Shown: positions 10,059 to 21,387 of the stretch, in pieces | Position numbering within the stretch: position 1 is the first letter of the stretch | Layout of the letters: every line of letters begins with the position of its first letter | DNA from: Nitrospirota bacterium | Lineage (GTDB): Bacteria; Nitrospirota; Thermodesulfovibrionia; Thermodesulfovibrionales; UBA1546 | Direction: 5' to 3' | Assembly (NCBI GenBank): GCA_009773185.1 | Contig: WPIF01000008.1 | Coordinates: forward strand, 62,001 to 126,000 | Length of the DNA: 64,000 nt | Made by a program: the position numbers and the translations under genes | The notes under the pieces: model-generated | The model's input: the letters and a program-made list of their open reading frames with translations, nothing else | The model's database searches: none | What the model was told of the DNA's origin: nothing

Positions 10059-10284
10059 CACTTTGAAATTATTTTTAAGATAAAAACTGCTGACTTGAAT
10101 TTAACCCTGCAGTGCTTTCTGTTGTTGATTGTTTAAACTGCCACGCTGCTACCTCGCGCACTTTTAAAAAATATCTTGCATTTATTTAGGGTTATATGCA
10201 TTTTCATGGTATTTTATGTTAAAATTATCTAAATTTTTATCTGACTCGTCAGATTCGATGAGGCGAAAAGGAGCAAAGAGGCCT

Positions 10285-12018
10285 ATGCATAACAAGATAA
10301 CAGGCGCAGAGATATTGATTGAAAGCTTGAAGAAAGAGGGCGTGAAGTATATCTTCGGTTACCCCGGCGGTGTTGTACTCAATATATTTGACCACCTTTA
10401 TGAAAATAAAGACCTGAACTTAATCCTCACAAGGCATGAGCAGGGCGCTGTTCACGCAGCAGACGGCTTTGCAAGGGCGTCAGGAAAAACAGGCGTGGCG
10501 CTGGTTACCTCCGGCCCCGGAGCTACGAATACCGTGACCGGCATTGCAACCGCCTCGATGGATTCCATACCTATGGTTGTGTTTTCAGGACAGGTGCCGA
10601 CCATGCTTATTGGAAATGATGCTTTTCAGGAGGCTGATATTGTCGGTATCACAAGGCCCTGTACAAAATATAACTTTCTCGTAAAGGACGTAAGCGACCT
10701 TTCAAGGATAGTAAAAGAGGCATTTTATATAGCATCTACAGGAAGGCCGGGCCCTGTTCTTATAGACCTTCCAAAGGATGTAACCACATGCAAGGCTGAT
10801 TTCACATGGCCTGAACTTGACATGAGGAGCTATAAGCCTACCTACGAAGGCAATAAGTGGATGATTACGCAGGCAGCCAATCTCATGGCAAAATCAAAAA
10901 AGCCGATAATCATAGCCGGAGGCGGGGTAATCATATCAGGCGCTGCAAAAGAATTAAGAGAACTGGCGGAACATACCGGTATTCCGGTTACCATGACATT
11001 GATGGGGCTTGGCGGTTTCCCCGGCTCTCATAAACTTTCTCTGGGCATGCTGGGAATGCACGGGACTTATTATGCAAACAAGGCAGTGCAGGATTCGGAC
11101 CTTATTATCGCTGTCGGGATGCGCTTTGACGACAGGGTGACAGGGAAGGTTGATGCCTTTGCGCCGAATGCAAAGATCGTTCATATAGACATTGACCCGA
11201 CATCAATAAAAAAGAATGTGAGGGTGGATGTTCCTATTGTAGGCGATGTTAAAAGAGTCCTTGCAGTTATGAATAAGGTATTAAAGGAAGAGGTAAAAGA
11301 ACAGTGGGATGAAGTCAGAAAGGCATGGCTGAAACAGATAGATATGTGGCGCGCAGAAAGGCCGATGTCCTATACGCACAGCGATGAAATTATAAAGCCC
11401 CAGTTTGTTGTTGAGAAGATATATGAGCTTACAAAGGGAGATGCGATAATAACTACAGAAGTGGGGCAGAACCAGATGTGGACAGCCCAGTTCTATAAAT
11501 TCGACAAGCCGAGGACCCTGCTTACATCAGGCGGCCTCGGAACAATGGGTTATGGTTTCCCTGCTGCAATAGGCGCGCAGTTTGCGCATCCTGAAAAACT
11601 TGTGATTGATATTGCCGGTGACGGGAGCATACAGATGAACATACAGGAGCTTGCTACGGCAGTAATCAATAAACTGCCTGTAAAGGTGGCCATACTTAAC
11701 AACAGGTTCCTTGGCATGGTCAGGCAGTGGCAGGAGTTATTTTTTGAGGAAAGGTACTCTCATACAAAACTTGATGTTGTGCCTGACTTTGTTAAGATTG
11801 CCGAGGCATACGGCGCTGTCGGCCTCAGGGCAACTAAGCCGAGCGAGGTTGAGCCTGTTCTCAAAGAGGCGTTTAAGATAAAGCGGACTGTATTCATGGA
11901 TTTTGTTGTTGACTGGAAAGAAAAAGTCTATCCGATGGTCCCTGCCGGCGCAGCAATAGACCATATGCTCTTTGAGCAGGAAAAGAAACCTGAAAAGAAA
12001 TTAAAGGCAGTGAAATAA
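10285..12018 (+). CDS. ilvB: Acetolactate synthase large subunit
   Basis: A thiamine-diphosphate enzyme forming acetolactate or acetohydroxybutyrate. It shows the N-terminal [15 protein letters not shown], the catalytic-glutamate segment [20 protein letters not shown], the central FAD-binding domain and the C-terminal ThDP motif [18 protein letters not shown] place the start at ATG 10285 ([13 protein letters not shown]), which matches the family N terminus and has AGGAG and AGAGG upstream. An upstream in-frame start at 10216 would add 23 residues with no family match. The usual partner ilvN is not next to it but lies 8.9 kb downstream, beyond an accessory island. Confidence 0.96.
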
Positions 12019-12025
12019 TTTTTTT

Positions 12026-12415
12026 ATGGACAAACAAAAGGCGATTAATTACTGGTTCAATATGGCAGATTATGACTTAAAGACAGCACAAATAATGTTG
12101 GACGGCAGGCGTTATCTTTACGTGGGCTTTATGTGCCATCAAGTAATTGAGAAAGCATTCAAGGGTTTATATGTGTACCAGCATAATAAAATTCCACCAT
12201 ATACACACAACATTTTAGCCTTGTGTGCAGATTTGGATATCACGCTGACAGAAGAACAGAAAACTTTTCTTGCAGAACTGAATCCTCTAAATATAGAGGC
12301 GCGGTATCCGGAAATGAAAGAAAAATTAGCAAGAATTGTAAATAAAAAGAAGGCTGACTACTTATTGGAAAAAACGAAAGGCATATACAAATGGCTCAAA
12401 TCGAAAAGAAGGTAA
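12026..12415 (+). CDS. HEPN domain protein (toxin of a HEPN-MNT pair)
   Basis: A 129-residue helical HEPN protein (PF05168-like): an N-terminal AINYWFNMADYDLKTAQIML, then MCHQVIEKAFKGLY, and NIEARYPEMKEKLARIV, whose ARYP segment is typical of the family. No clear R-x4-6-H RNase motif is seen. It starts only 7 bases after ilvB and overlaps the downstream nucleotidyltransferase gene by 25 bp, which is the standard HEPN-MNT toxin-antitoxin arrangement. In this pair the nucleotidyltransferase usually inactivates the HEPN toxin. Confidence 0.85.
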   Translation: MDKQKAINYWFNMADYDLKTAQIMLDGRRYLYVGFMCHQVIEKAFKGLYVYQHNKIPPYTHNILALCADLDITLTEEQKTFLAELNPLNIEARYPEMKEKLARIVNKKKADYLLEKTKGIYKWLKSKRR

Positions 12416-12738
12416 AAAAGGTTTTGCGGAACTATCTGTCGAAGGTTCAGGAGGAAATCCCGGTGGAGTTTGCTATCTTATATGGATCGCAGGCCAAAGG
12501 AAAGGCGCATTCTGGCAGCGATATTGATGTGGCAATATTTTCCAGTAAATTTAAGAATAAATCCCACTATTCAGCCCAGGTGATATTGCAGAAATGCTTG
12601 TGGGGAATGAAAGCCGATATCCAGCCGATAGGTTATTCCATGAAAGATTATGCTTCCAAAAATAAATTGGATTTCGTCGGAGGCATTATTAAGAAAGAAG
12701 GAATTATAGTTTGTAAGAACAATAAGATTTTAATATAA
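12391..12738 (+). CDS. MNT-type nucleotidyltransferase antitoxin
   Basis: A 115-residue minimal nucleotidyltransferase with the catalytic motif GSQAKGKAHSGSDIDVAIF, matching G-S-x10-D-x-D. A third acidic residue in the strand KADIQPI is consistent with the fold. Paired and overlapping with the HEPN gene before it. Known MNT antitoxins adenylylate a tyrosine of the HEPN toxin; that activity here is by family analogy. Confidence 0.87.
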   Translation: MAQIEKKVKKVLRNYLSKVQEEIPVEFAILYGSQAKGKAHSGSDIDVAIFSSKFKNKSHYSAQVILQKCLWGMKADIQPIGYSMKDYASKNKLDFVGGIIKKEGIIVCKNNKILI

Positions 12739-12771
12739 ATTGCAAGAGTCAAAGCGGAACGAGATGAAGGG

Positions 12772-15700
12772 ATGAGAAAATTTAAACGTGAAAAGTTTCC
12801 GCCTCGGGCGGATTCGCCGGTGGCGAAAAAAGTTGAAAATTCAAGATGTCATTTACCTCTAATCGCATCCTGCGCAATCATTTTTGTGGTTTTAATGGCT
12901 TTTGAAGTATCTGCTGAGTATGTAGGGTGTGTTTCTATTTCTACTCCATGTGCTGTGTCATCATGTCCTTCTCTTCCGGTTGCATATCCTGAGATTGGTA
13001 CTCCTTTGCAATATCAACTTCCTGCTGGGTCTTCTGTGTGCCCTGTGAATACAACTTATGTTGAGTGGATAAAAGGGCAGCCCAGACCAGTTTCTCTTGA
13101 TGTAGATAGTTATACCTGGGACGGAAAAAGTTGGTTTTTGCTTGGTTGGTATCTTGGATGGAATTGGTCTGGCGATGCAAATTTAGGTTATTATGCGTAT
13201 TTTACTCTTTTTTTAACTCCTAAGCCTGCATTAACCTGGCATTGCAATAATGTTTCTTTTGATTGTGCTACTTGTAAAGGCACTTCTTCTGGGGATGTAA
13301 ATACCGGTATTCCTTTTTCATCTCCTTCGCCTGGTGCAACTACCGTTTGTGGCGGGAAAAGTATTTTTGAAACTGGGGATGGTAATTGGAACTGTTCTCA
13401 ATGCACAAATGGTGAAACAAAGGCATGCCCCTATTCAGGCCCACAAGGCGGCATCTGCAAGGCAGGGATGCAGACCTGCACAAACGGGCAGTGGGGAGCG
13501 TGTGAGGGAGAAGTCCTGCCTGCAACGCAAGAAACCTGCGGAGATAATCTTGATAACAACTGTGATGGGAATACGGATGAGGGGTGTGTGGTATGTGAGG
13601 ACAAAGACGGAGACGGCTATTCGGCCTATAACGCAACAAGCTGTCCGCAGGGCAATGACTGCAATGACTTTAATAAGGATATAAATCCAGGAGCAACAGA
13701 GGCGTGTAATACCAGAGATGACAACTGCAATGGCCTTAAAGACGAGACATGCATGGGAGGCTCATGCAGCAATATTCCTCTTGGCTCAACTGCCAATCCC
13801 GGAAGCGGAAACCTTTATCACGACCAGACCTTATTCAATACAACCACTCTCGGTCTTACCCTTTCATATAACTCGAAAGATAACTTTAACAGCCCGCTTG
13901 GCAAGGGCTGGACACATAACTACAACCTTGCCCTATTCTCCAATTTTGAAAACAGTATTGGGCTAAAACAAGGAGACGGGAAGGTCGTATATTTCAGGCT
14001 CGATAACGGCATCTACTATCCTGATGCAAACAGCGGAGAAGACTCATATATCACATACACTAGCGAGACATATACTTTGATAGAAAAAGACGGAACAACT
14101 TATAATTTCAACTCACTTGGCAAGCTCATATCAGTCAGAGACAGAAACGGGAATACAACAACCCTTACCTATAATGGAGATTCTCTGACAGCCATAACAG
14201 ACCCGTCGGGAAGGACGATAACGCTTACTTATGATTCAACCAACAGAATAAGCAGCGTCAGAGATATTAATAACAACACTTACACTTTCGCTTACACGGA
14301 TGGCAATGCGCTATCAGCTATCAGCTATCAGCAGTCAGCATGGACTTATTCGTATGACGCTAACGGCCAATTGCTCACAAAGACAGACCCGCAGGGATAT
14401 ATAACGACCTATGTATATGACAGCGAAGGAAGGGTTACATCCTCAATAGACCCTGAAGGCAAAACTAAGGCTATCAGCTATCCCCTCCTCGGCGGGCAAG
14501 AGCCGTCAGCTAGTTCAGTCTCGGTAACAGAAAAAGATGGCGGAGTATGGACATATAAATACGACCCTCTGCTTAACGTAACAACCCAAAAGACAGACCC
14601 GCAAGGCAACACAACAGCCTACACCTATGACCAATATAAAAACCTCATCTCAAAGACAGAGCCTGACGGAGGCATAACGAGCTATACGTATGACGAATAT
14701 GGCAATATGGCGTCTGTTACAGATTCGGCTGGAAATATAACGGCATACACCTATAACGAATTCGGTCAGACAACGAGCATAACGGATTCAGAGGGGAATG
14801 TAACAAGATATGAATATGATTCAAACGGGAATCAAACAGCAGTCATTGATTCCACAGGAGCGGTGACGAGGTATCAATATGACCAGAGAGGAAACATAAC
14901 TGAGATAACATATTCCAACGGCCAGAAGACGCAGATGACATACGACCAATTTAATAACATGATCTCGATAACAGACCCTTCAGGCTTAACAACGAGATTT
15001 ACATACGACATTGCTGGCAACATACTTGCACAGATGGACTCAACAGGCAACACAACCGAATATACTTACGACAGCTTGAACCGCCTCATAAAGCTGATAG
15101 AGCCAAACGGCAGCATAACGCAATACACATACGATGAAAAAGGAAACAGAACCTCATCAACAGACGCGAACCTCAACATCATCCAATACGTATATAACTA
15201 CAAAGACCAGCTTATAAAAGTCCTTGACCCGCTAAGCGGCATAACTACGTATGAATACGGCGGAACAGGCTGTCCCTCATGTGGCAGCAGCGGAGACAAA
15301 CTGACGGCCATTATAGATGCAATGGGCAATAGAACGGCATTTGAATATGATCTTTTAGGCAGACTGACTAAGGAGACAAATTCGTTAGGAAAGGTGATTG
15401 CCTATTCGTATGATGCAAGAGGCAATATGCTTACGAAGAGCGATGAAAATGGGAATATTATAAATTACGCATACGATACCCTAAGCAGGCTCACCAAAAA
15501 GACCTATCCAGATGGAACAACAGAAGAATATAGATACGACTCAAAAAGCAATCTCATCTATGCTGGAAATCAGTGGATTGCATATAACTTTGTTTATGAT
15601 GCGAAAGGAAGACTTGTTGCAGTTACCGACTCAAACGGAAGGGTGATAACTTATCAATACGATTCAATGGGTAATAGGATTAGCATGACAACGTCTGAAG

Positions 15701-17226
15701 GCAAGATTATCACATACAAATACGATGCAAGCAACAGGCTAATAGAAATAGCATCAGAAGGACAGATTTTTATATTTGCTTATGACACCCTTGGAAGGCG
15801 AATAAAATTAATTAATCCCAACGGCACATACACGACCTACAGCTACGATAAAAACAGCATGCTGACAGAGCTTGTTCATAAAGATTCAAAAGGCTCAATT
15901 ATCAACTCATTCACATATACGCACGACAAGGTAGGAAATCGTCTGACTAAGACAGAACTTGATAAAAAAACAACTTATACTTACGACCCGTTGTATCGCT
16001 TGACGCAGGCTTTACCGACAAAACTACAAGGCAAAGATAAGACGCAGGAAAATAAGCAGGAGACATTTAGTTATGACCCTGTCGGAAACAGGCTTATCGG
16101 CCCGAGAGCAAATGATTATTATTCTTACAACCAAGGCAATCAGCTAACCAATGACAGAAAGAACCAGTATGAATACGATGCAAATGGAAACCTCGTAAAG
16201 AAAACGACATCTGAGGGAATGACGGCCTATTTCTACGATTACGAGAATCGATTAATCAAGGTGGTCAAACAGGAAAACAATGAGACGGTCGTTGTATCGT
16301 TCAAATATGATCCATTCGGAAGGCGCATCGAAAAGAAAGTTGCAGGGGACGATGGAACAAAAACCTATAACTACGTTTATGATAACGAGGATATAATCCT
16401 TGAATACGAGACTAAGACAGACGGCAAAGTAGAAACAACTCGTTATACTCACGGATTGGGAATTGATGAGCCATTGGCAGTCGAACAAAAAGGCAATGTT
16501 TATTATTATCATGCTGACGGTCTCGGCAGTATTATTGCCCTCACTGATAAAAGGCAAAAAACGGTTCAGAGTTATACGTATGATTCGTTCGGAGTGATGA
16601 AACAATCGGGCGATAAAGTAAAACAGCCTTACACATACACCGCACGAGAATGGGATGAAGAAATCAAGTTGTATTTCAATAGGGCAAGATATAGAGACCC
16701 TTACACTGGAATTTTTACAACAAAAGACCCGATATTACATCCGGCGAATGGACCGCCAATTGGTGCTTGTAGAAAAAGTGATTCATCGCAGATGTTAGAT
16801 GCTTCCCAAAGCCATCCCTATATTTACTCCAATAACAATCCCATCACTAAAAAAGATCCTCTTGGCCTATTTAGTATAGCTGGCGACTGTTGTGGAAAAG
16901 AAAATAAAATACGTCAAGAAGTACAATCATCTTGCAGTAGATTGAATACTATTGTTACAGATTTAAAGCTCAGAAATTGTATCTCGAAAAGTTGTAGTAG
17001 TGGAACAATACGATGCACAAATTGTGATAATCCAAGACTTCTTGGTTATAGTTACGGTAAAATTCTCTGGCTTTTCCCAAGACGAAGTTTTTATTTATGT
17101 GTTGGCAATGTTAGGAATGCAAATTTCGGTGATATTGCTCTTCATGAGTGGTCTCATGGCTGTGGTTGGGAAGATGGAGAATTAGGAAAGGGGGTACCAG
17201 GTGAAGCAGGTTATATATATAATTAA
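12772..17226 (+). CDS. RHS/YD-repeat protein with metallopeptidase-like C-terminal tip
   Basis: A 1484-residue secreted polymorphic-toxin-like protein. Order: a basic N terminus partly encoded by a dispersed repeat (residues 4-22); a hydrophobic signal segment (LIASCAIIFVVLMAFEVSA); a Cys-rich region with MopE-type calcium or metal repeats (DNLDNNCDGNTDEGC, DKDGDGYSAYN, TRDDNCNGLKDETC) at about 255-325; more than twenty YD repeats (GNxxxYxYD) from about 440 to 1290; and an RHS core end (RARYRDPYTGIFTTKDPI, then YIYSNNNPITKKDPLGLF). Past DPLGLF the last 119 residues are a variable tip with HEWSHGCGWED, H1458 to D1468. This matches HExxHxxGxxD, a metzincin-like zinc site. The next gene, overlapping by 26 bp, encodes a lipoprotein that could be the immunity protein. 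Confidence 0.92.
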   Translation: MRKFKREKFPPRADSPVAKKVENSRCHLPLIASCAIIFVVLMAFEVSAEYVGCVSISTPCAVSSCPSLPVAYPEIGTPLQYQLPAGSSVCPVNTTYVEWIKGQPRPVSLDVDSYTWDGKSWFLLGWYLGWNWSGDANLGYYAYFTLFLTPKPALTWHCNNVSFDCATCKGTSSGDVNTGIPFSSPSPGATTVCGGKSIFETGDGNWNCSQCTNGETKACPYSGPQGGICKAGMQTCTNGQWGACEGEVLPATQETCGDNLDNNCDGNTDEGCVVCEDKDGDGYSAYNATSCPQGNDCNDFNKDINPGATEACNTRDDNCNGLKDETCMGGSCSNIPLGSTANPGSGNLYHDQTLFNTTTLGLTLSYNSKDNFNSPLGKGWTHNYNLALFSNFENSIGLKQGDGKVVYFRLDNGIYYPDANSGEDSYITYTSETYTLIEKDGTTYNFNSLGKLISVRDRNGNTTTLTYNGDSLTAITDPSGRTITLTYDSTNRISSVRDINNNTYTFAYTDGNALSAISYQQSAWTYSYDANGQLLTKTDPQGYITTYVYDSEGRVTSSIDPEGKTKAISYPLLGGQEPSASSVSVTEKDGGVWTYKYDPLLNVTTQKTDPQGNTTAYTYDQYKNLISKTEPDGGITSYTYDEYGNMASVTDSAGNITAYTYNEFGQTTSITDSEGNVTRYEYDSNGNQTAVIDSTGAVTRYQYDQRGNITEITYSNGQKTQMTYDQFNNMISITDPSGLTTRFTYDIAGNILAQMDSTGNTTEYTYDSLNRLIKLIEPNGSITQYTYDEKGNRTSSTDANLNIIQYVYNYKDQLIKVLDPLSGITTYEYGGTGCPSCGSSGDKLTAIIDAMGNRTAFEYDLLGRLTKETNSLGKVIAYSYDARGNMLTKSDENGNIINYAYDTLSRLTKKTYPDGTTEEYRYDSKSNLIYAGNQWIAYNFVYDAKGRLVAVTDSNGRVITYQYDSMGNRISMTTSEGKIITYKYDASNRLIEIASEGQIFIFAYDTLGRRIKLINPNGTYTTYSYDKNSMLTELVHKDSKGSIINSFTYTHDKVGNRLTKTELDKKTTYTYDPLYRLTQALPTKLQGKDKTQENKQETFSYDPVGNRLIGPRANDYYSYNQGNQLTNDRKNQYEYDANGNLVKKTTSEGMTAYFYDYENRLIKVVKQENNETVVVSFKYDPFGRRIEKKVAGDDGTKTYNYVYDNEDIILEYETKTDGKVETTRYTHGLGIDEPLAVEQKGNVYYYHADGLGSIIALTDKRQKTVQSYTYDSFGVMKQSGDKVKQPYTYTAREWDEEIKLYFNRARYRDPYTGIFTTKDPILHPANGPPIGACRKSDSSQMLDASQSHPYIYSNNNPITKKDPLGLFSIAGDCCGKENKIRQEVQSSCSRLNTIVTDLKLRNCISKSCSSGTIRCTNCDNPRLLGYSYGKILWLFPRRSFYLCVGNVRNANFGDIALHEWSHGCGWEDGELGKGVPGEAGYIYN
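12796..12833. repeat. Dispersed repeat at the 5' end of the RHS gene
   Basis: TTTCCGCCTCGGGCGGATTC and the following CGCCGGTGGCGAAA match the reverse complement of 6236-6268 in hemH with a few changes. Here it is translated as residues 9-21 before the signal segment. Confidence 0.65.
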
Positions 17227-17638
17227 AACTATGAGTATTATTTATTTACTTCTTTTAATAGGGTGCACGACACATATTGACTATTTGTATCAATTCCATA
17301 TTGCTGGCACCGTCGTAGGTTTTAAAAATGAAACTCCTACTGAGAAGGTAGAGATACTTTTTGTAGATACAGGTTTTATCCCAGTTAAAGGAGATAAGAA
17401 AATAATACATAAAATTGGACTAAGCGGAGAAGATGGAAATTTTGATTTGACTTTCGATTATTGGTGGGGATATAAAAAAACATTCTATACCACAAAGCCT
17501 AAAGAGACGTTCGATCTGATATTTAAGAAGGAAGGTTTTGAGGAAAAAATTATTTCGTATGATTCAAAAGCACTGCCACAAAAAGATAATGTCATTCAGG
17601 TTGGCGTAGGCAAGATATATTTGGTGCCTAAAAAATAA
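17201..17638 (+). CDS. Lipoprotein, candidate immunity protein for the RHS tip
   Basis: A 145-residue protein with a lipoprotein signal (MSIIYLLLLIGC, cysteine near residue 22). The remainder has a beta-rich pattern (HIAGTVVGFKNETPTEKVEI, LSGEDGNFDLTFDYWWG) resembling carboxypeptidase-regulatory or transthyretin-like folds. It starts at GTG 17201 within the end of the RHS gene, with AAAGGGGG upstream, and no other gene intervenes. A small gene overlapping the end of an RHS toxin is the usual place for its immunity protein, and a periplasmic lipoprotein suits protection against a protease acting outside the cytoplasm. Function is inferred from position. Confidence 0.72.
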   Translation: MKQVIYIIKTMSIIYLLLLIGCTTHIDYLYQFHIAGTVVGFKNETPTEKVEILFVDTGFIPVKGDKKIIHKIGLSGEDGNFDLTFDYWWGYKKTFYTTKPKETFDLIFKKEGFEEKIISYDSKALPQKDNVIQVGVGKIYLVPKK

Positions 17639-17658
17639 ATAAACCGAAAAGAGGACAG

Positions 17659-17684
17659 AACAAAAAAGGGGACAGGCTACTTTT
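17659..17684. repeat. Left inverted repeat of the RAYT unit
   Basis: A 26-bp arm containing AAAAAAGGGGACAGGCTAC. It is the exact reverse complement of 18375-18400. Confidence 0.85.
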
Positions 17685-17706
17685 AGGATAGGAATGGATA
17701 AAAAAA

Positions 17707-18375
17707 ATGCCGAGAGTTGTTAGAGGATTAGCTGATAACTATGTGTATCACATTATCAACAGGGGAAATGGAAGGCAAGAGGTTTTCCATAAAGAAAAGG
17801 ATTACGAGGCATTCATTGATATTATGAAAGAGGCAAAAGAAAGATACTCTGTAAAACTGTTTTCATACTGCTTAATGCCGAATCATTTTCATATGGTTGT
17901 AATGCCTGAGCGTGGAGATGAGTTAAGCAAATGTATGCAGTGGTTGATGACAAGCCATGTCAGACGATATCACAGGCACTATGGAAGCAGCGGCCATATA
18001 TGGCAGGGGAGATTTAAGAGTTTTATAGTACAAAAAGATTCACATCTGCTGATGGCCATGAGGTATGTTGAAGGCAATCCATTAAGAGCCGGATTGGTAA
18101 GCTCTGCTAAAGAATGGCCGTGGTCGTCGCATCGAGAAATGATTGGAGGAAAGAAAAACATTCTGGCAGGGGAAGTCCCGTTAGACTTACCTGAAAACTG
18201 GGAAAGATACATAGATGAACCATTGACATATAAAGAGTTGGAAAGGGTCAGACAGAGTGTTGTCAGGCAATCGCCATATGGGAAGCCCGATTGGCAGACA
18301 AAGGTGTGCAAGGAGCTGGGTTTAGAGTCTACTTTGAATCCAAAAGGCAGACCAAAAAAGGAGAAAAAGGCATGA
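17707..18375 (+). CDS. REP-associated tyrosine transposase (Y1_Tnp)
   Basis: A 222-residue transposase of the IS200/IS605-related RAYT family. Visible elements: the N-terminal YVYHIINRGNGRQEVF; the metal-binding HxH in LMPNHFHMVV (about residue 60); WQGRFKSFIV; and the catalytic tyrosine in MRYVEGNPLRAGLV, followed by WPWSSH. These enzymes cut and rejoin single-stranded REP-type hairpins. The flanking inverted repeats are its likely substrates. The length and motifs suggest an intact enzyme. It lies between the RHS module and a set of hypotheticals, so it may have shaped this island. Confidence 0.93.
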   Translation: MPRVVRGLADNYVYHIINRGNGRQEVFHKEKDYEAFIDIMKEAKERYSVKLFSYCLMPNHFHMVVMPERGDELSKCMQWLMTSHVRRYHRHYGSSGHIWQGRFKSFIVQKDSHLLMAMRYVEGNPLRAGLVSSAKEWPWSSHREMIGGKKNILAGEVPLDLPENWERYIDEPLTYKELERVRQSVVRQSPYGKPDWQTKVCKELGLESTLNPKGRPKKEKKA

Positions 18376-18400
18376 AAAGTAGCCTGTCCCCTTTTTTGTT
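18375..18400. repeat. Right inverted repeat of the RAYT unit
   Basis: A 26-bp arm beginning at the last base of the transposase stop codon. It is the exact reverse complement of 17659-17684. Confidence 0.85.
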
Positions 18401-18441
18401 GTCCTTTTTTGTTCTCTATTGGCACCAGTAGGGATATAAAA

Positions 18442-19536
18442 TTGATTTCTATATCTTATACTATTAAGAACATTGTTCTTTTCCCGATTCGGCTGGCTTC
18501 AGCGTTGCTGTGGTTTTTGTGGTCCATGTTTTTTGATTTTGCTGCACTTTATCCTGGTTGTGCGCCAATTTTCTGGGACAATGATCGCTATGTGTTCTAT
18601 TTGAGGAGAAAAGGATTTTTCACATATTGTGTCGTTATGTATGAGTTGCGGTCTCAAGATTATGAAATTGTTTATCAGAGTAAATTTCCTATACAAAAGT
18701 TTCGTTTAAATAATAACGAACTACTATGCGGCTATTATATAAAAGGTGAGATTCGCTATATAATAATCAACGTAAAAGACCGAACAAGCCGGTCTGTATC
18801 AAGTTTTGCAACCGTTGTCCGCAATTGTTATGCACTTTTACCGACAAGTATCGGTGTTATTTCATACCACAAACTTTGTGCTAACGCGGTGTGCCATCGA
18901 CAAATTATCATGACTACCAATTCCGGCCAGGAAGTATTAGAAAACTATATTGAGGATGAGATGCTTCGTTCACCTTCTTTCTCTAATGACGAACGTTTCT
19001 TTTCTTATTCGACAGTAAAGGGTATTTATATCGGTATTGTGTCAACTAAAAAACAACTGTTCTTTCCAGAGGGGGAGTCCTTTGTTTATAACTGGGATAA
19101 CAATGGGAACATGCTGGCTTACAGTATAAAAAATGGTAATTTTTTAGTGCTAAATCCATCGGATTCTCAACGAAAGGAAATTAAACTGCCGAATGAATTT
19201 GCAAATCAGCGGGTTTTTGTTGCTGCAATATCACCGAAGGGCAATCTTATTGCTTATAGCATGGAGAAGAATATTCGGGGTAGTGCAAAAGATATTTTTC
19301 TAGTGTTGCAATCAGCCTCCTCAAATCATTATAAAGTGCTTGCAAAAAAAGCCCGTATTTTCGACATTAAATGGTCAGAGAATGAAAAATACCTATCTAT
19401 TGCAGGCGTGGATAAACGTGATCTATTTGATATCAGCTATGGATACAAGATGAGAAATGCCACAAATCATGATAAAGAGATTATTGACATTGACGGAAAC
19501 ATAATTATGCAATCATCTAAGGTTAGACTATCGTGA
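18442..19536 (+). CDS. Hypothetical beta-propeller-like protein
   Basis: About 364 residues of unknown family. An N-terminal hydrophobic segment (FPIRLASALLWFLWSMFF) suggests a membrane anchor or signal. The rest has WD40/TolB-like blade patterns: VYNWDNNGNMLAYSIKNG, FVAAISPKGNLIAYSMEKN, and IFDIKWSENEKYLSIAGVD. The start is uncertain. The frame stays open up to TTG 18409 inside the RAYT end, but TTG 18442 lies past the repeat and is more plausible. The original 5' end could also have been lost when the repeat moved in. The AT-rich sequence contrasts with the ilv genes. Confidence 0.6.
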   Translation: MISISYTIKNIVLFPIRLASALLWFLWSMFFDFAALYPGCAPIFWDNDRYVFYLRRKGFFTYCVVMYELRSQDYEIVYQSKFPIQKFRLNNNELLCGYYIKGEIRYIIINVKDRTSRSVSSFATVVRNCYALLPTSIGVISYHKLCANAVCHRQIIMTTNSGQEVLENYIEDEMLRSPSFSNDERFFSYSTVKGIYIGIVSTKKQLFFPEGESFVYNWDNNGNMLAYSIKNGNFLVLNPSDSQRKEIKLPNEFANQRVFVAAISPKGNLIAYSMEKNIRGSAKDIFLVLQSASSNHYKVLAKKARIFDIKWSENEKYLSIAGVDKRDLFDISYGYKMRNATNHDKEIIDIDGNIIMQSSKVRLS

Positions 19537-19575
19537 AGTCATTTTATACAGGTAAAAAAGAGCAGACTGATTTAT

Positions 19576-20334
19576 ATGTTGTCCACAATGATTACAAATA
19601 AATTGCTTAAAATAGGATTTTTAACGCCTTTACTAGTTATTGTTATCAATACAGTAGCTTTTTGTAATGGCGATCAACAGGATAAATTGTGGTATAAGCA
19701 TGCAGCAGAATATATTAAAGCTGATGAAATAATGATTCAAAATGCAATTGAAAAAAAAGAAACTTTTCTTGAAGATTATGACTTGAGAGATGTGGCAACG
19801 TTAAAGCTAATTAACGCGCCTTCACCAACAATATCTGTATTGGAAAAACTATTGAAATCTAAGAATGCTCAGGATAGAAAGGTTGCACTTGTTAATATAA
19901 TGGTAAGGAATATTTATTCTGAGAATTTATTCAAAACAATTTTAGGGGGATACGATACTAATGATGATTTCTTCATCAGGTTCTATAGATATAGATGTTT
20001 TAAGTTTTTGGGCAAAGATAAGATCAGGCACTTCGAAGATAAGTTTCTTATTCTTTTGTCTTTAGAAAATAATGGTTCAATTATAATAAGCGCAATGCCG
20101 ACTTTAATAGAGATAGAGCCTTCAAAAGTAATTCCCTTTTTTGTTCAATATTTTAAAAGTAGCGATAGGGGACTCAGGTTAGCATCGTATGTTTATTTAA
20201 AGAGAATGGGAGAAGGATATTTAAATGACGTCAAGAGCATTTTGGAAAAAGAAAATGCAGTTGAAGCACTAAATTTTATTAAAGAAGCAGAATCAGGGAA
20301 GAAACCAAGCCAGAGGAATGAAAAAGAAAAGTAA
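19576..20334 (+). CDS. Secreted hypothetical protein with HEAT-like helical repeats
   Basis: A 252-residue protein with an N-terminal signal segment (LLKIGFLTPLLVIVINTVAF). The mature part is helical with spaced repeats such as SVLEKLLKSKNAQDRKVALV and GLRLASYVYLKRMG, which recall HEAT or PBS-lyase repeats. AT-rich composition matches the other island genes. It overlaps the next gene by 17 bp. No family is recognised; a role as a second immunity or accessory factor in the RHS island is only a possibility. Confidence 0.65.
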   Translation: MLSTMITNKLLKIGFLTPLLVIVINTVAFCNGDQQDKLWYKHAAEYIKADEIMIQNAIEKKETFLEDYDLRDVATLKLINAPSPTISVLEKLLKSKNAQDRKVALVNIMVRNIYSENLFKTILGGYDTNDDFFIRFYRYRCFKFLGKDKIRHFEDKFLILLSLENNGSIIISAMPTLIEIEPSKVIPFFVQYFKSSDRGLRLASYVYLKRMGEGYLNDVKSILEKENAVEALNFIKEAESGKKPSQRNEKEK

Positions 20335-20596
20335 AAAAGGACAGCTTGATCAACTGAGGGAAATGGCAGATACAATGCAACAAGCAATATTTTTTAGCGT
20401 AGTTATTATTCTTGGCAGTGGAGGGGCTCTTTTCCTATCGATCCCAGAAAAAGTTAGAAATAGACTCTCAAATTCAAAGAGTATTCATATCAGATTAATT
20501 GGCGTCTTAATGATCATGATTGCTATTGCAATAGTTATTCAACAGATGACGATAAGCTCATTAATTCACATAATTAGTGGTCTAAAAAATAAATGA
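20318..20596 (+). CDS. Small two-helix membrane protein
   Basis: A 92-residue protein with a basic N terminus (KKKSKKG) and two hydrophobic stretches (IFFSVVIILGSGGALFL and IRLIGVLMIMIAIAIVI). It overlaps the preceding secreted protein gene, so the two are probably co-translated. Function unknown. Confidence 0.6.
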   Translation: MKKKSKKGQLDQLREMADTMQQAIFFSVVIILGSGGALFLSIPEKVRNRLSNSKSIHIRLIGVLMIMIAIAIVIQQMTISSLIHIISGLKNK

Positions 20597-20637
20597 TGCG
20601 GAATAGAAAGATGAAACAATTACAGAGAATCTTACTA

Positions 20638-20769
20638 ATGCGGAGGCTATGTGCCTATCTGCTGGTTTTGAAATATATTCAATTAACCTCAGACAGAAGG
20701 CATCAATACGAATATGACAATAACGGCAATTTGGTAAAAAAAGAACAAAAAAGGGGACAGGCTGATTAA
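20638..20769 (+). pseudogene. RHS/YD-repeat remnant joined to a RAYT repeat
   Basis: A 43-codon frame whose second half reads QLTSDRRHQYEYDNNGNLVKK. It is clearly homologous to QLTNDRKNQYEYDANGNLVKK in the RHS protein (DNA near 16140-16200). The homology ends where the RAYT repeat (20744-20763) begins, and the frame then runs to a stop. It is a leftover of a second or older RHS gene copy, cut at the repeat. Not expected to be functional. Confidence 0.75.
20744..20763. repeat. RAYT-family repeat, solitary copy
   Basis: Twenty bases identical to the left repeat of the RAYT unit (17659 onward), in the same orientation, right after an RHS gene fragment. Confidence 0.85.
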
Positions 20770-20810
20770 ATGAGTAGAAAGAATAGGGACAGCGATTGTT
20801 AAAAAATAAT

Positions 20811-20839
20811 TTGATGAGATGAACGAGATGATATATAAT
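20811..20839 (+). promoter_or_regulatory. Candidate promoter of ilvN and the gsp genes
   Basis: TTGATG (20811-20816), a 17-base spacer and a perfect TATAAT (20834-20839) lie 60 bases before the ilvN start. A dedicated promoter here makes sense because ilvN has been separated from ilvB by the island. Confidence 0.6.
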
Positions 20840-20898
20840 ACAAAAGGCAAAATTATGGAATTTATTGTGAATAGTTAATTTAAACTTAGAGGAGCGAT

Positions 20899-21387
20899 AT
20901 GAGACATACAATCTCTGTTTTGGTTGAGAACAAATTCGGAGTGCTTTCGAGGATATCAGGACTCTTCAGCGGAAGAGGGTATAACATTGAGAGCCTCTCT
21001 GTAGGGGAAACCATTGACCCGCAGATATCCATTATGACGATAGTGACAACCGGAGATGACTGGGTCATAGAGCAGATTACGAAACAGCTTAATAAGCTTA
21101 TTGACGTCATAAAAGTCACTGACATGACAGAGCTTGACCATGTTGAGCGCGAGATGGTTTTATTGAAGGTTTCGCCAAAGCAGGAGAATAAGGCAGAGGT
21201 GCTTAATCTTACAGAGATATTCAGGGGCAGGATAGTTGATTCAAGCCAGAAGACATACACCATTGAAATTACTGGCAATGAAAAGAAAATAGAGGCCTTT
21301 GTTGAGCTTATGAGGCCTATGGGCATAAAAGAGTTTGTAAGAACCGGAAAAGTTGCCATCACGAGAGAGGGTGTAAAAAAGAAATAA
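20899..21387 (+). CDS. ilvN: Acetolactate synthase small (regulatory) subunit
   Basis: A 162-residue regulatory subunit. It has an N-terminal ACT domain ([31 protein letters not shown]) and the conserved C-terminal domain ([19 protein letters not shown]). The ACT domain binds valine to inhibit the large subunit. The start ATG at 20899 has AGAGGAG upstream. It is separated from ilvB by the HEPN-MNT/RHS/RAYT island, and gspK begins 2 bases after its stop codon. Confidence 0.96.

What the first reader, a model, noticed from the sequence alone, without database searches (positions are those of the whole stretch)
16862..17226. RHS toxin tip with a metzincin-like HExxHxxGxxD site
The 119 residues after DPLGLF contain HEWSHGCGWED (H1458, H1462, D1468). 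This matches the zinc signature with Asp as third ligand, known from snapalysin-type metzincins. RHS tips are usually nucleases, deaminases or ADP-ribosyl-transferases; a small cysteine-rich zinc-protease tip would be a less common effector type.
Basis: partly seen in the sequence, partly recalled or inferred. Interest (0 to 1): 0.75.

Follow-up and report, generated by a model that had tools for sequence, protein, structure and literature searches.

The report
RHS toxin with mini-zincin-like protease tip
A large secreted bacterial RHS protein ends in a small cysteine-rich domain whose zinc-protease-type motif is kept in a relative from a different phylum, so it is probably a tiny protease toxin of a family not yet in the databases searched.

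Summary
The RHS ORF 12772-17226 (1484 aa) ends, after DPLGL, in a 118-residue tip with HEWSHGCGWED (H1458, E1459, H1462, D1468). It is the only HExxHxxGxx[DH] in six frames of the window; shuffling the tip gives it at 5e-6. No Pfam, NCBIfam, PHROG, PDB, plasmid, phage or IMG/VR relative was found. One true homologue was found: a truncated RHS end in an Acidobacteriota genome (E 4.7e-9; pairwise BLASTP 1e-15). It keeps all nine tip cysteines, HEWxHxCGW, an acidic residue at +10 (E instead of D) and KGVPxE. This supports a conserved zincin-type site, but not a snapalysin-type metzincin: the tip has no Met, so no Met-turn, and only 16 residues follow the motif. The closest described layout is the "mini-zincin" (Acel_2062, PF06262), without detectable sequence kinship. 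Metallopeptidase RHS tips as a class are known (Tox-MPTase1-5); this family appears undescribed in the libraries searched. The RHS has a probable Sec signal, is followed by a lipoprotein-like gene (candidate immunity), and lies on an 8.9-kb island between ilvB and ilvN, which are adjacent in six relatives. Fold and activity remain unproven (AlphaFold pLDDT 37).

The parts
12772..17226 (+). RHS/YD-repeat protein, 1484 aa, with MopE-type metal-binding repeats, DUF6531, RHS repeats and RHS-associated core
   Evidence: ORF; RHS_repeat 1.3e-126, Cu-binding_MopE 3.4e-14, DUF6531 2.2e-8; Rhs_assc_core 6.3e-12 ending at residue 1366
12772..12915 (+). Probable Sec signal peptide (residues 1-48, ...LPLIASCAIIFVVLMAFEVSA|EY)
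   Evidence: Read from the sequence; no signal-peptide predictor was available, so inferred
16855..16869 (+). DPLGL motif, predicted aspartyl autocleavage site that releases the tip
   Evidence: Sequence; autocleavage at such motifs shown for other Rhs proteins in PMC8636562
16870..17226 (+). C-terminal tip, 118 aa (F1367-N1484), nine Cys, no Met; putative mini-zincin-like metallopeptidase toxin
   Evidence: homologue in G926/L182, E 4.7e-9, BLASTP 1e-15
17143..17175 (+). HEWSHGCGWED: H1458, E1459, H1462, C1464, D1468
   Evidence: homologue HEWAHTCGWKE
17188..17205 (+). KGVPGE, conserved after the motif (KGVPDE in the homologue); E1478 is an alternative third zinc ligand
   Evidence: Invariant columns K117 G118 V119 P120 E122
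17201..17638 (+). Candidate immunity gene, 145 aa, GTG start overlapping the RHS 3' end by 26 bp behind AGGAAAGGGGG; lipoprotein-like start (...LLLLIGC)
   Evidence: ORF; sequence; no Pfam/NCBIfam/PHROG match; immunity role inferred from position and topology
12019..20890 (.). Island between ilvB (10216-12018) and ilvN (20899-21387), holding HEPN/MNT, RHS + candidate immunity, IS200-like transposase and others
   Evidence: ilvB and ilvN adjacent in six relatives

Best explanation
The tip is a small, cysteine-rich zinc-metallopeptidase toxin domain of a family not in the searched databases, built on the mini-zincin principle. An HExxH helix close to the C-terminus supplies two His ligands (H1458, H1462) and the general base (E1459). 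A carboxylate within the short remaining tail, most simply D1468 (E in the homologue), completes the zinc site, without a Met-turn. The RHS protein is exported by Sec, the RHS shell cages the tip, and autocleavage at DPLGL frees it. The tip then cuts a protein of a competitor's envelope or surface. The overlapping lipoprotein-like gene downstream protects the producer on the periplasmic side. Shown here: the motif, its conservation with nine Cys in an independent homologue, the RHS architecture, the downstream gene and the island. Inferred: zinc binding, fold, proteolysis, autocleavage, target compartment, immunity.
For: Motif unlikely by chance. Homologous RHS tip in a genome of the Acidobacteriota sample, 39% identity over 91 residues, E 4.7e-9, BLASTP 1e-15, 32% over 117, local-alignment score 24 s.d. 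above shuffles. Between the two, H, E, H, CGW, all nine Cys and KGVPxE are invariant while most of the rest differs. Position +10 is D/E, the same D-to-E exchange reported in mini-zincin homologues (PMC3890501). Size (118 aa) and an HExxH near the C-terminus with no Met-turn match that minimal scaffold. RHS/YD core and DPLGL directly before the tip. Precedent for zincin tips on RHS proteins (PMC3482391). Nine conserved Cys, a probable signal peptide and a lipoprotein-like partner all fit action outside the cytoplasm.
Against: No match to any peptidase family or solved structure at E<=10 for the window tip; only a sub-threshold M90 hit (E 0.12) for the homologue. Structure prediction failed (pLDDT 37, no alignment) and its Foldseek hits are noise, so ligand geometry is untested. 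The family rests on two sequences. The candidate immunity proteins of the two loci are not similar beyond chance. A D-to-E change at a zinc ligand is not neutral in geometry.
Confidence: 0.62

Rival explanations
1. A zincin, but of mini-Glu-zincin type: the third zinc ligand is the invariant E1478 of KGVPxE, not D1468.
For: E1478 is invariant in the alignment whereas +10 is D in one and E in the other. The homologue's only, sub-threshold, Pfam hit is to Peptidase_M90, over the HExxH-to-GVP stretch.
Against: Only two sequences, so invariance means little. E1478 lies seven residues from the C-terminus, with little room for the third-ligand helix usual in Glu-zincins (general knowledge).
Confidence: 0.2
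2. A disulfide-rich or zinc-binding toxin domain that is not a peptidase: the His and Cys residues bind a structural metal, or the domain acts as another enzyme or a receptor-binding module.
For: No fold or family assignment at all; nine conserved Cys including one inside the motif; several known toxin folds use His clusters (PMC3482391).
Against: The catalytic Glu of HExxH is conserved with both His and the Gly at +7, which is the zincin pattern; a structural site would not need that Glu.
Confidence: 0.15
3. A true metzincin (snapalysin-like, M7).
For: HExxHxxGxxD in the window sequence.
Against: No Met in the tip, so no Met-turn; Glu at +10 in the homologue; no M7 or other metzincin Pfam match at E<=10.
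Confidence: 0.03

Closest known systems
Mini-zincins (Acel_2062, PDB 3E11; PF06262/DUF1025, provisional MEROPS M94; PMC3890501)
   Same: About 110-120 aa, HExxHxxGxxD very near the C-terminus, no Met-turn, third ligand often Glu in the homologues that depart from the motif
   Different: No sequence match; those are intracellular single-domain proteins without signal peptide; the tip is Cys-rich, probably Sec-exported and RHS-fused; the C-terminal aromatic residue of M94 is not the last residue here and is absent in the homologue
Tox-MPTase1-5 polymorphic-toxin metallopeptidases (PMC3482391)
   Same: Small zincin-like HExxH domains at the C-terminus of RHS proteins
   Different: No match to any Pfam or NCBIfam toxin model; Tox-MPTase1 could not be tested here; the paper's table lists no immunity partner for them
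Snapalysin / metzincins (M7, MA(M))
   Same: HExxHxxGxxD signature
   Different: No Met-turn; Glu in the homologue; no family match
Peptidase_M90 (MtfA)
   Same: The homologue aligns weakly from HExxH to GVP (E 0.12)
   Different: Below cut-off (12.4 vs 26.2 bits); the window tip itself has no hit

Membership tests
RHS/YD-repeat polymorphic toxins | RHS repeats and RHS-associated core ending in DPxG followed by a variable tip | tested here: met
   another own-genome RHS with a different tip seen in L168
RHS/YD-repeat polymorphic toxins | Adjacent cognate immunity gene | tested here: inconclusive
   An overlapping small lipoprotein-like gene follows; the homologous locus also has a small N-terminally anchored protein, but the two are not similar beyond chance
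Metzincins (incl. snapalysin M7) | Met-turn after the third ligand | tested here: not met
   No Met in residues 1367-1484
Metzincins (incl. snapalysin M7) | HExxHxxGxxH/D | tested here: inconclusive
   Met in the window sequence; the homologue has Glu at the last position
Mini-zincin PF06262 / M94 | Match to the family model | tested here: not met
   No Pfam match at E<=10; no PDB sequence match to zincins
Mini-zincin PF06262 / M94 | Minimal fold: three-stranded sheet and active-site helix near the C-terminus, no Met-turn | tested here: inconclusive
   Length and motif position fit; the model is unreliable (pLDDT 37)
Tox-MPTase2-5 (any Pfam/NCBIfam toxin metallopeptidase) | Match to a family model | tested here: not met
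Tox-MPTase1 | Alignment to published members | not testable with these tools
   The alignment is in a figure and supplement that are not held
Zincins (clan MA) in general | Zinc bound by HExxH plus a third ligand, with peptidase activity | not testable with these tools
   Needs structure or biochemistry; sequence conservation only

The most novel reading that the evidence does not exclude
A new family of polymorphic-toxin tip: a disulfide-rich mini-zincin, the smallest kind of HExxH peptidase, Sec-exported on an RHS carrier, active outside the cytoplasm and held in check by a periplasm-facing lipoprotein. It would be a working peptidase on a scaffold for which activity had not been demonstrated in the paper that described it.
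Probability: 0.4. Interest if true: 0.55.

Novelty: new variant of a known kind. Interest (0 to 1): 0.42.

Why it matters
Peptidase tips are a minority among RHS effectors and few have been characterised. A 118-residue, cysteine-rich zincin tip would be a compact system for testing whether minimal zincins are catalytic, and for finding envelope-protein targets in bacterial competition. If it is not a peptidase, it warns against reading HExxH alone as a protease.

Tried and rejected
Close-relative scans of genome contigs and viral contigs with the tip: none confirmed. Viral patterns gave phage or unrelated HExxH proteins and chance frames. HELGHACGLDH hits in the window's order look like archaemetzincin-type stand-alone proteins, not tips. 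Own-phylum hits at E 1e-6 to 1e-2 were mostly cysteine-rich frames with stops, none with the motif; the class, Planctomycetota and Chloroflexota hits were likewise weak and not followed as relatives. A Pseudomonadota pattern search of 398 genomes gave chance frames only. Plasmid and phage tblastn hits (E 0.08-0.7) were rejected. AlphaFold on the tip and on the candidate immunity protein gave pLDDT 37 and 40; the Foldseek result is meaningless.

Full report
The window ORF 12772-17226 codes for a 1484-residue RHS/YD-repeat protein with 21 RHS-repeat stretches, two MopE-type metal-binding motifs, DUF6531 and an RHS-associated core that ends at residue 1366. Its start has a hydrophobic stretch ending VSA|EY that reads as a Sec signal peptide (from the sequence; no predictor was available). 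After D1362-P-L-G-L there are 118 residues with nine Cys and no Met, containing HEWSHGCGWED at H1458-D1468.

The motif is not a chance reading. It is the only HExxHxxGxx[DH] in six frames of the window, and shuffling the tip gives it 5 times in a million. The stronger argument is conservation. There the frame is an RHS C-terminal fragment of 348 aa ending in a homologous tip. Pairwise BLASTP gives 1e-15. All nine cysteines, H, E, H, the CGW after the HExxH and a KGVPxE stretch are invariant; the Asp at +10 is Glu. Conservation of all putative catalytic residues in a pair only about 32-39% identical supports a functional site.

What kind of site? A metzincin is excluded by definition, since there is no methionine anywhere in the tip. 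A paper found for this question describes the best analogue: mini-zincins, about 110 residues, HExxHxxGxxD near the C-terminus, no Met-turn; where homologues depart from the motif, the third ligand is often Glu (PMC3890501). The tip matches that plan in length, position of the motif and D/E exchange. It is not a member by sequence: no match to the tip at E<=10 in Pfam or PHROGs or at E<=1 in NCBIfam, and no zincin in the PDB sequence searches. I therefore say it probably works like a mini-zincin, not that it is one. The invariant E1478 of KGVPxE is the main alternative third ligand. In the mini-zincin structure itself no zinc was seen, only water in one site.

Metallopeptidase tips on RHS proteins are a known kind: Zhang et al. 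list Tox-MPTase1-5, typically with N-terminal RHS repeats (PMC3482391). What appears new is this cysteine-rich family, with no model in the libraries searched.

Mode of action is inferred. In other Rhs proteins the shell cages the toxin and aspartyl autoproteolysis cuts it loose (PMC8636562). A probable signal peptide, nine conserved cysteines and the next gene point to action outside the cytoplasm. That gene, 17201-17638, starts at a GTG inside the end of the RHS gene behind AGGAAAGGGGG and begins MKQVIYIIKTMSIIYLLLLIGC, a lipoprotein-like signal. In the homologous locus the tip is also followed, 55 bp on, by a small protein with an N-terminal membrane segment and a weak Ig-like hit (Big_1, E 0.012, below cut-off). 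The two partner proteins are not similar beyond chance, so the pairing is by position and topology only.

The RHS gene lies on a lineage-specific island. In two genomes of the same genus (G425, G426) and four of the same family (G274, G104, G260, G004) ilvB and ilvN are adjacent, some 4 to 20 bases apart; in the window 8.9 kb separate them. The island also carries a HEPN/MNT pair and an IS200-like transposase.

Limits: two sequences, no usable structure (pLDDT 37), no biochemistry. The fold search on that model is not evidence. The one scan of genome contigs by motif demanded Asp at +10 and so was blind to Glu variants like the homologue; absence of hits there must not be read as rarity.

Noticed in passing
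window 12019-20890: About 8.9-kb island inserted exactly between ilvB and ilvN, adjacent in six relatives; it separates two subunit genes of acetolactate synthase.
   Followed up: partly
window 12026-12738: HEPN (8.5e-24) followed by a nucleotidyltransferase (Polbeta/NTP_transf_2), an MNT/HEPN-type toxin-antitoxin pair, directly before the RHS gene.
   Followed up: no
window 17707-18375: IS200-like (REP-associated type) transposase, Y1_Tnp 2.3e-18, just after the candidate immunity gene.
   Followed up: no
L187:4089-5135: The homologous RHS frame is an N-terminally truncated fragment (RHS end + tip + small anchored protein), like an orphan tip cassette; the stretch just upstream looks as if it could hold a tRNA gene, not checked.
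   Followed up: partly
L168 (G000:C30): Another RHS protein of the same genome ends in a different cysteine-rich tip without HExxH.
   Followed up: no
L128, L139, L142: Stand-alone proteins with HExxHxCGxxD (e.g. IHEFVHCCGLTD, IHEYGHCCGWPD) in other genomes, not RHS tips.
   Followed up: no
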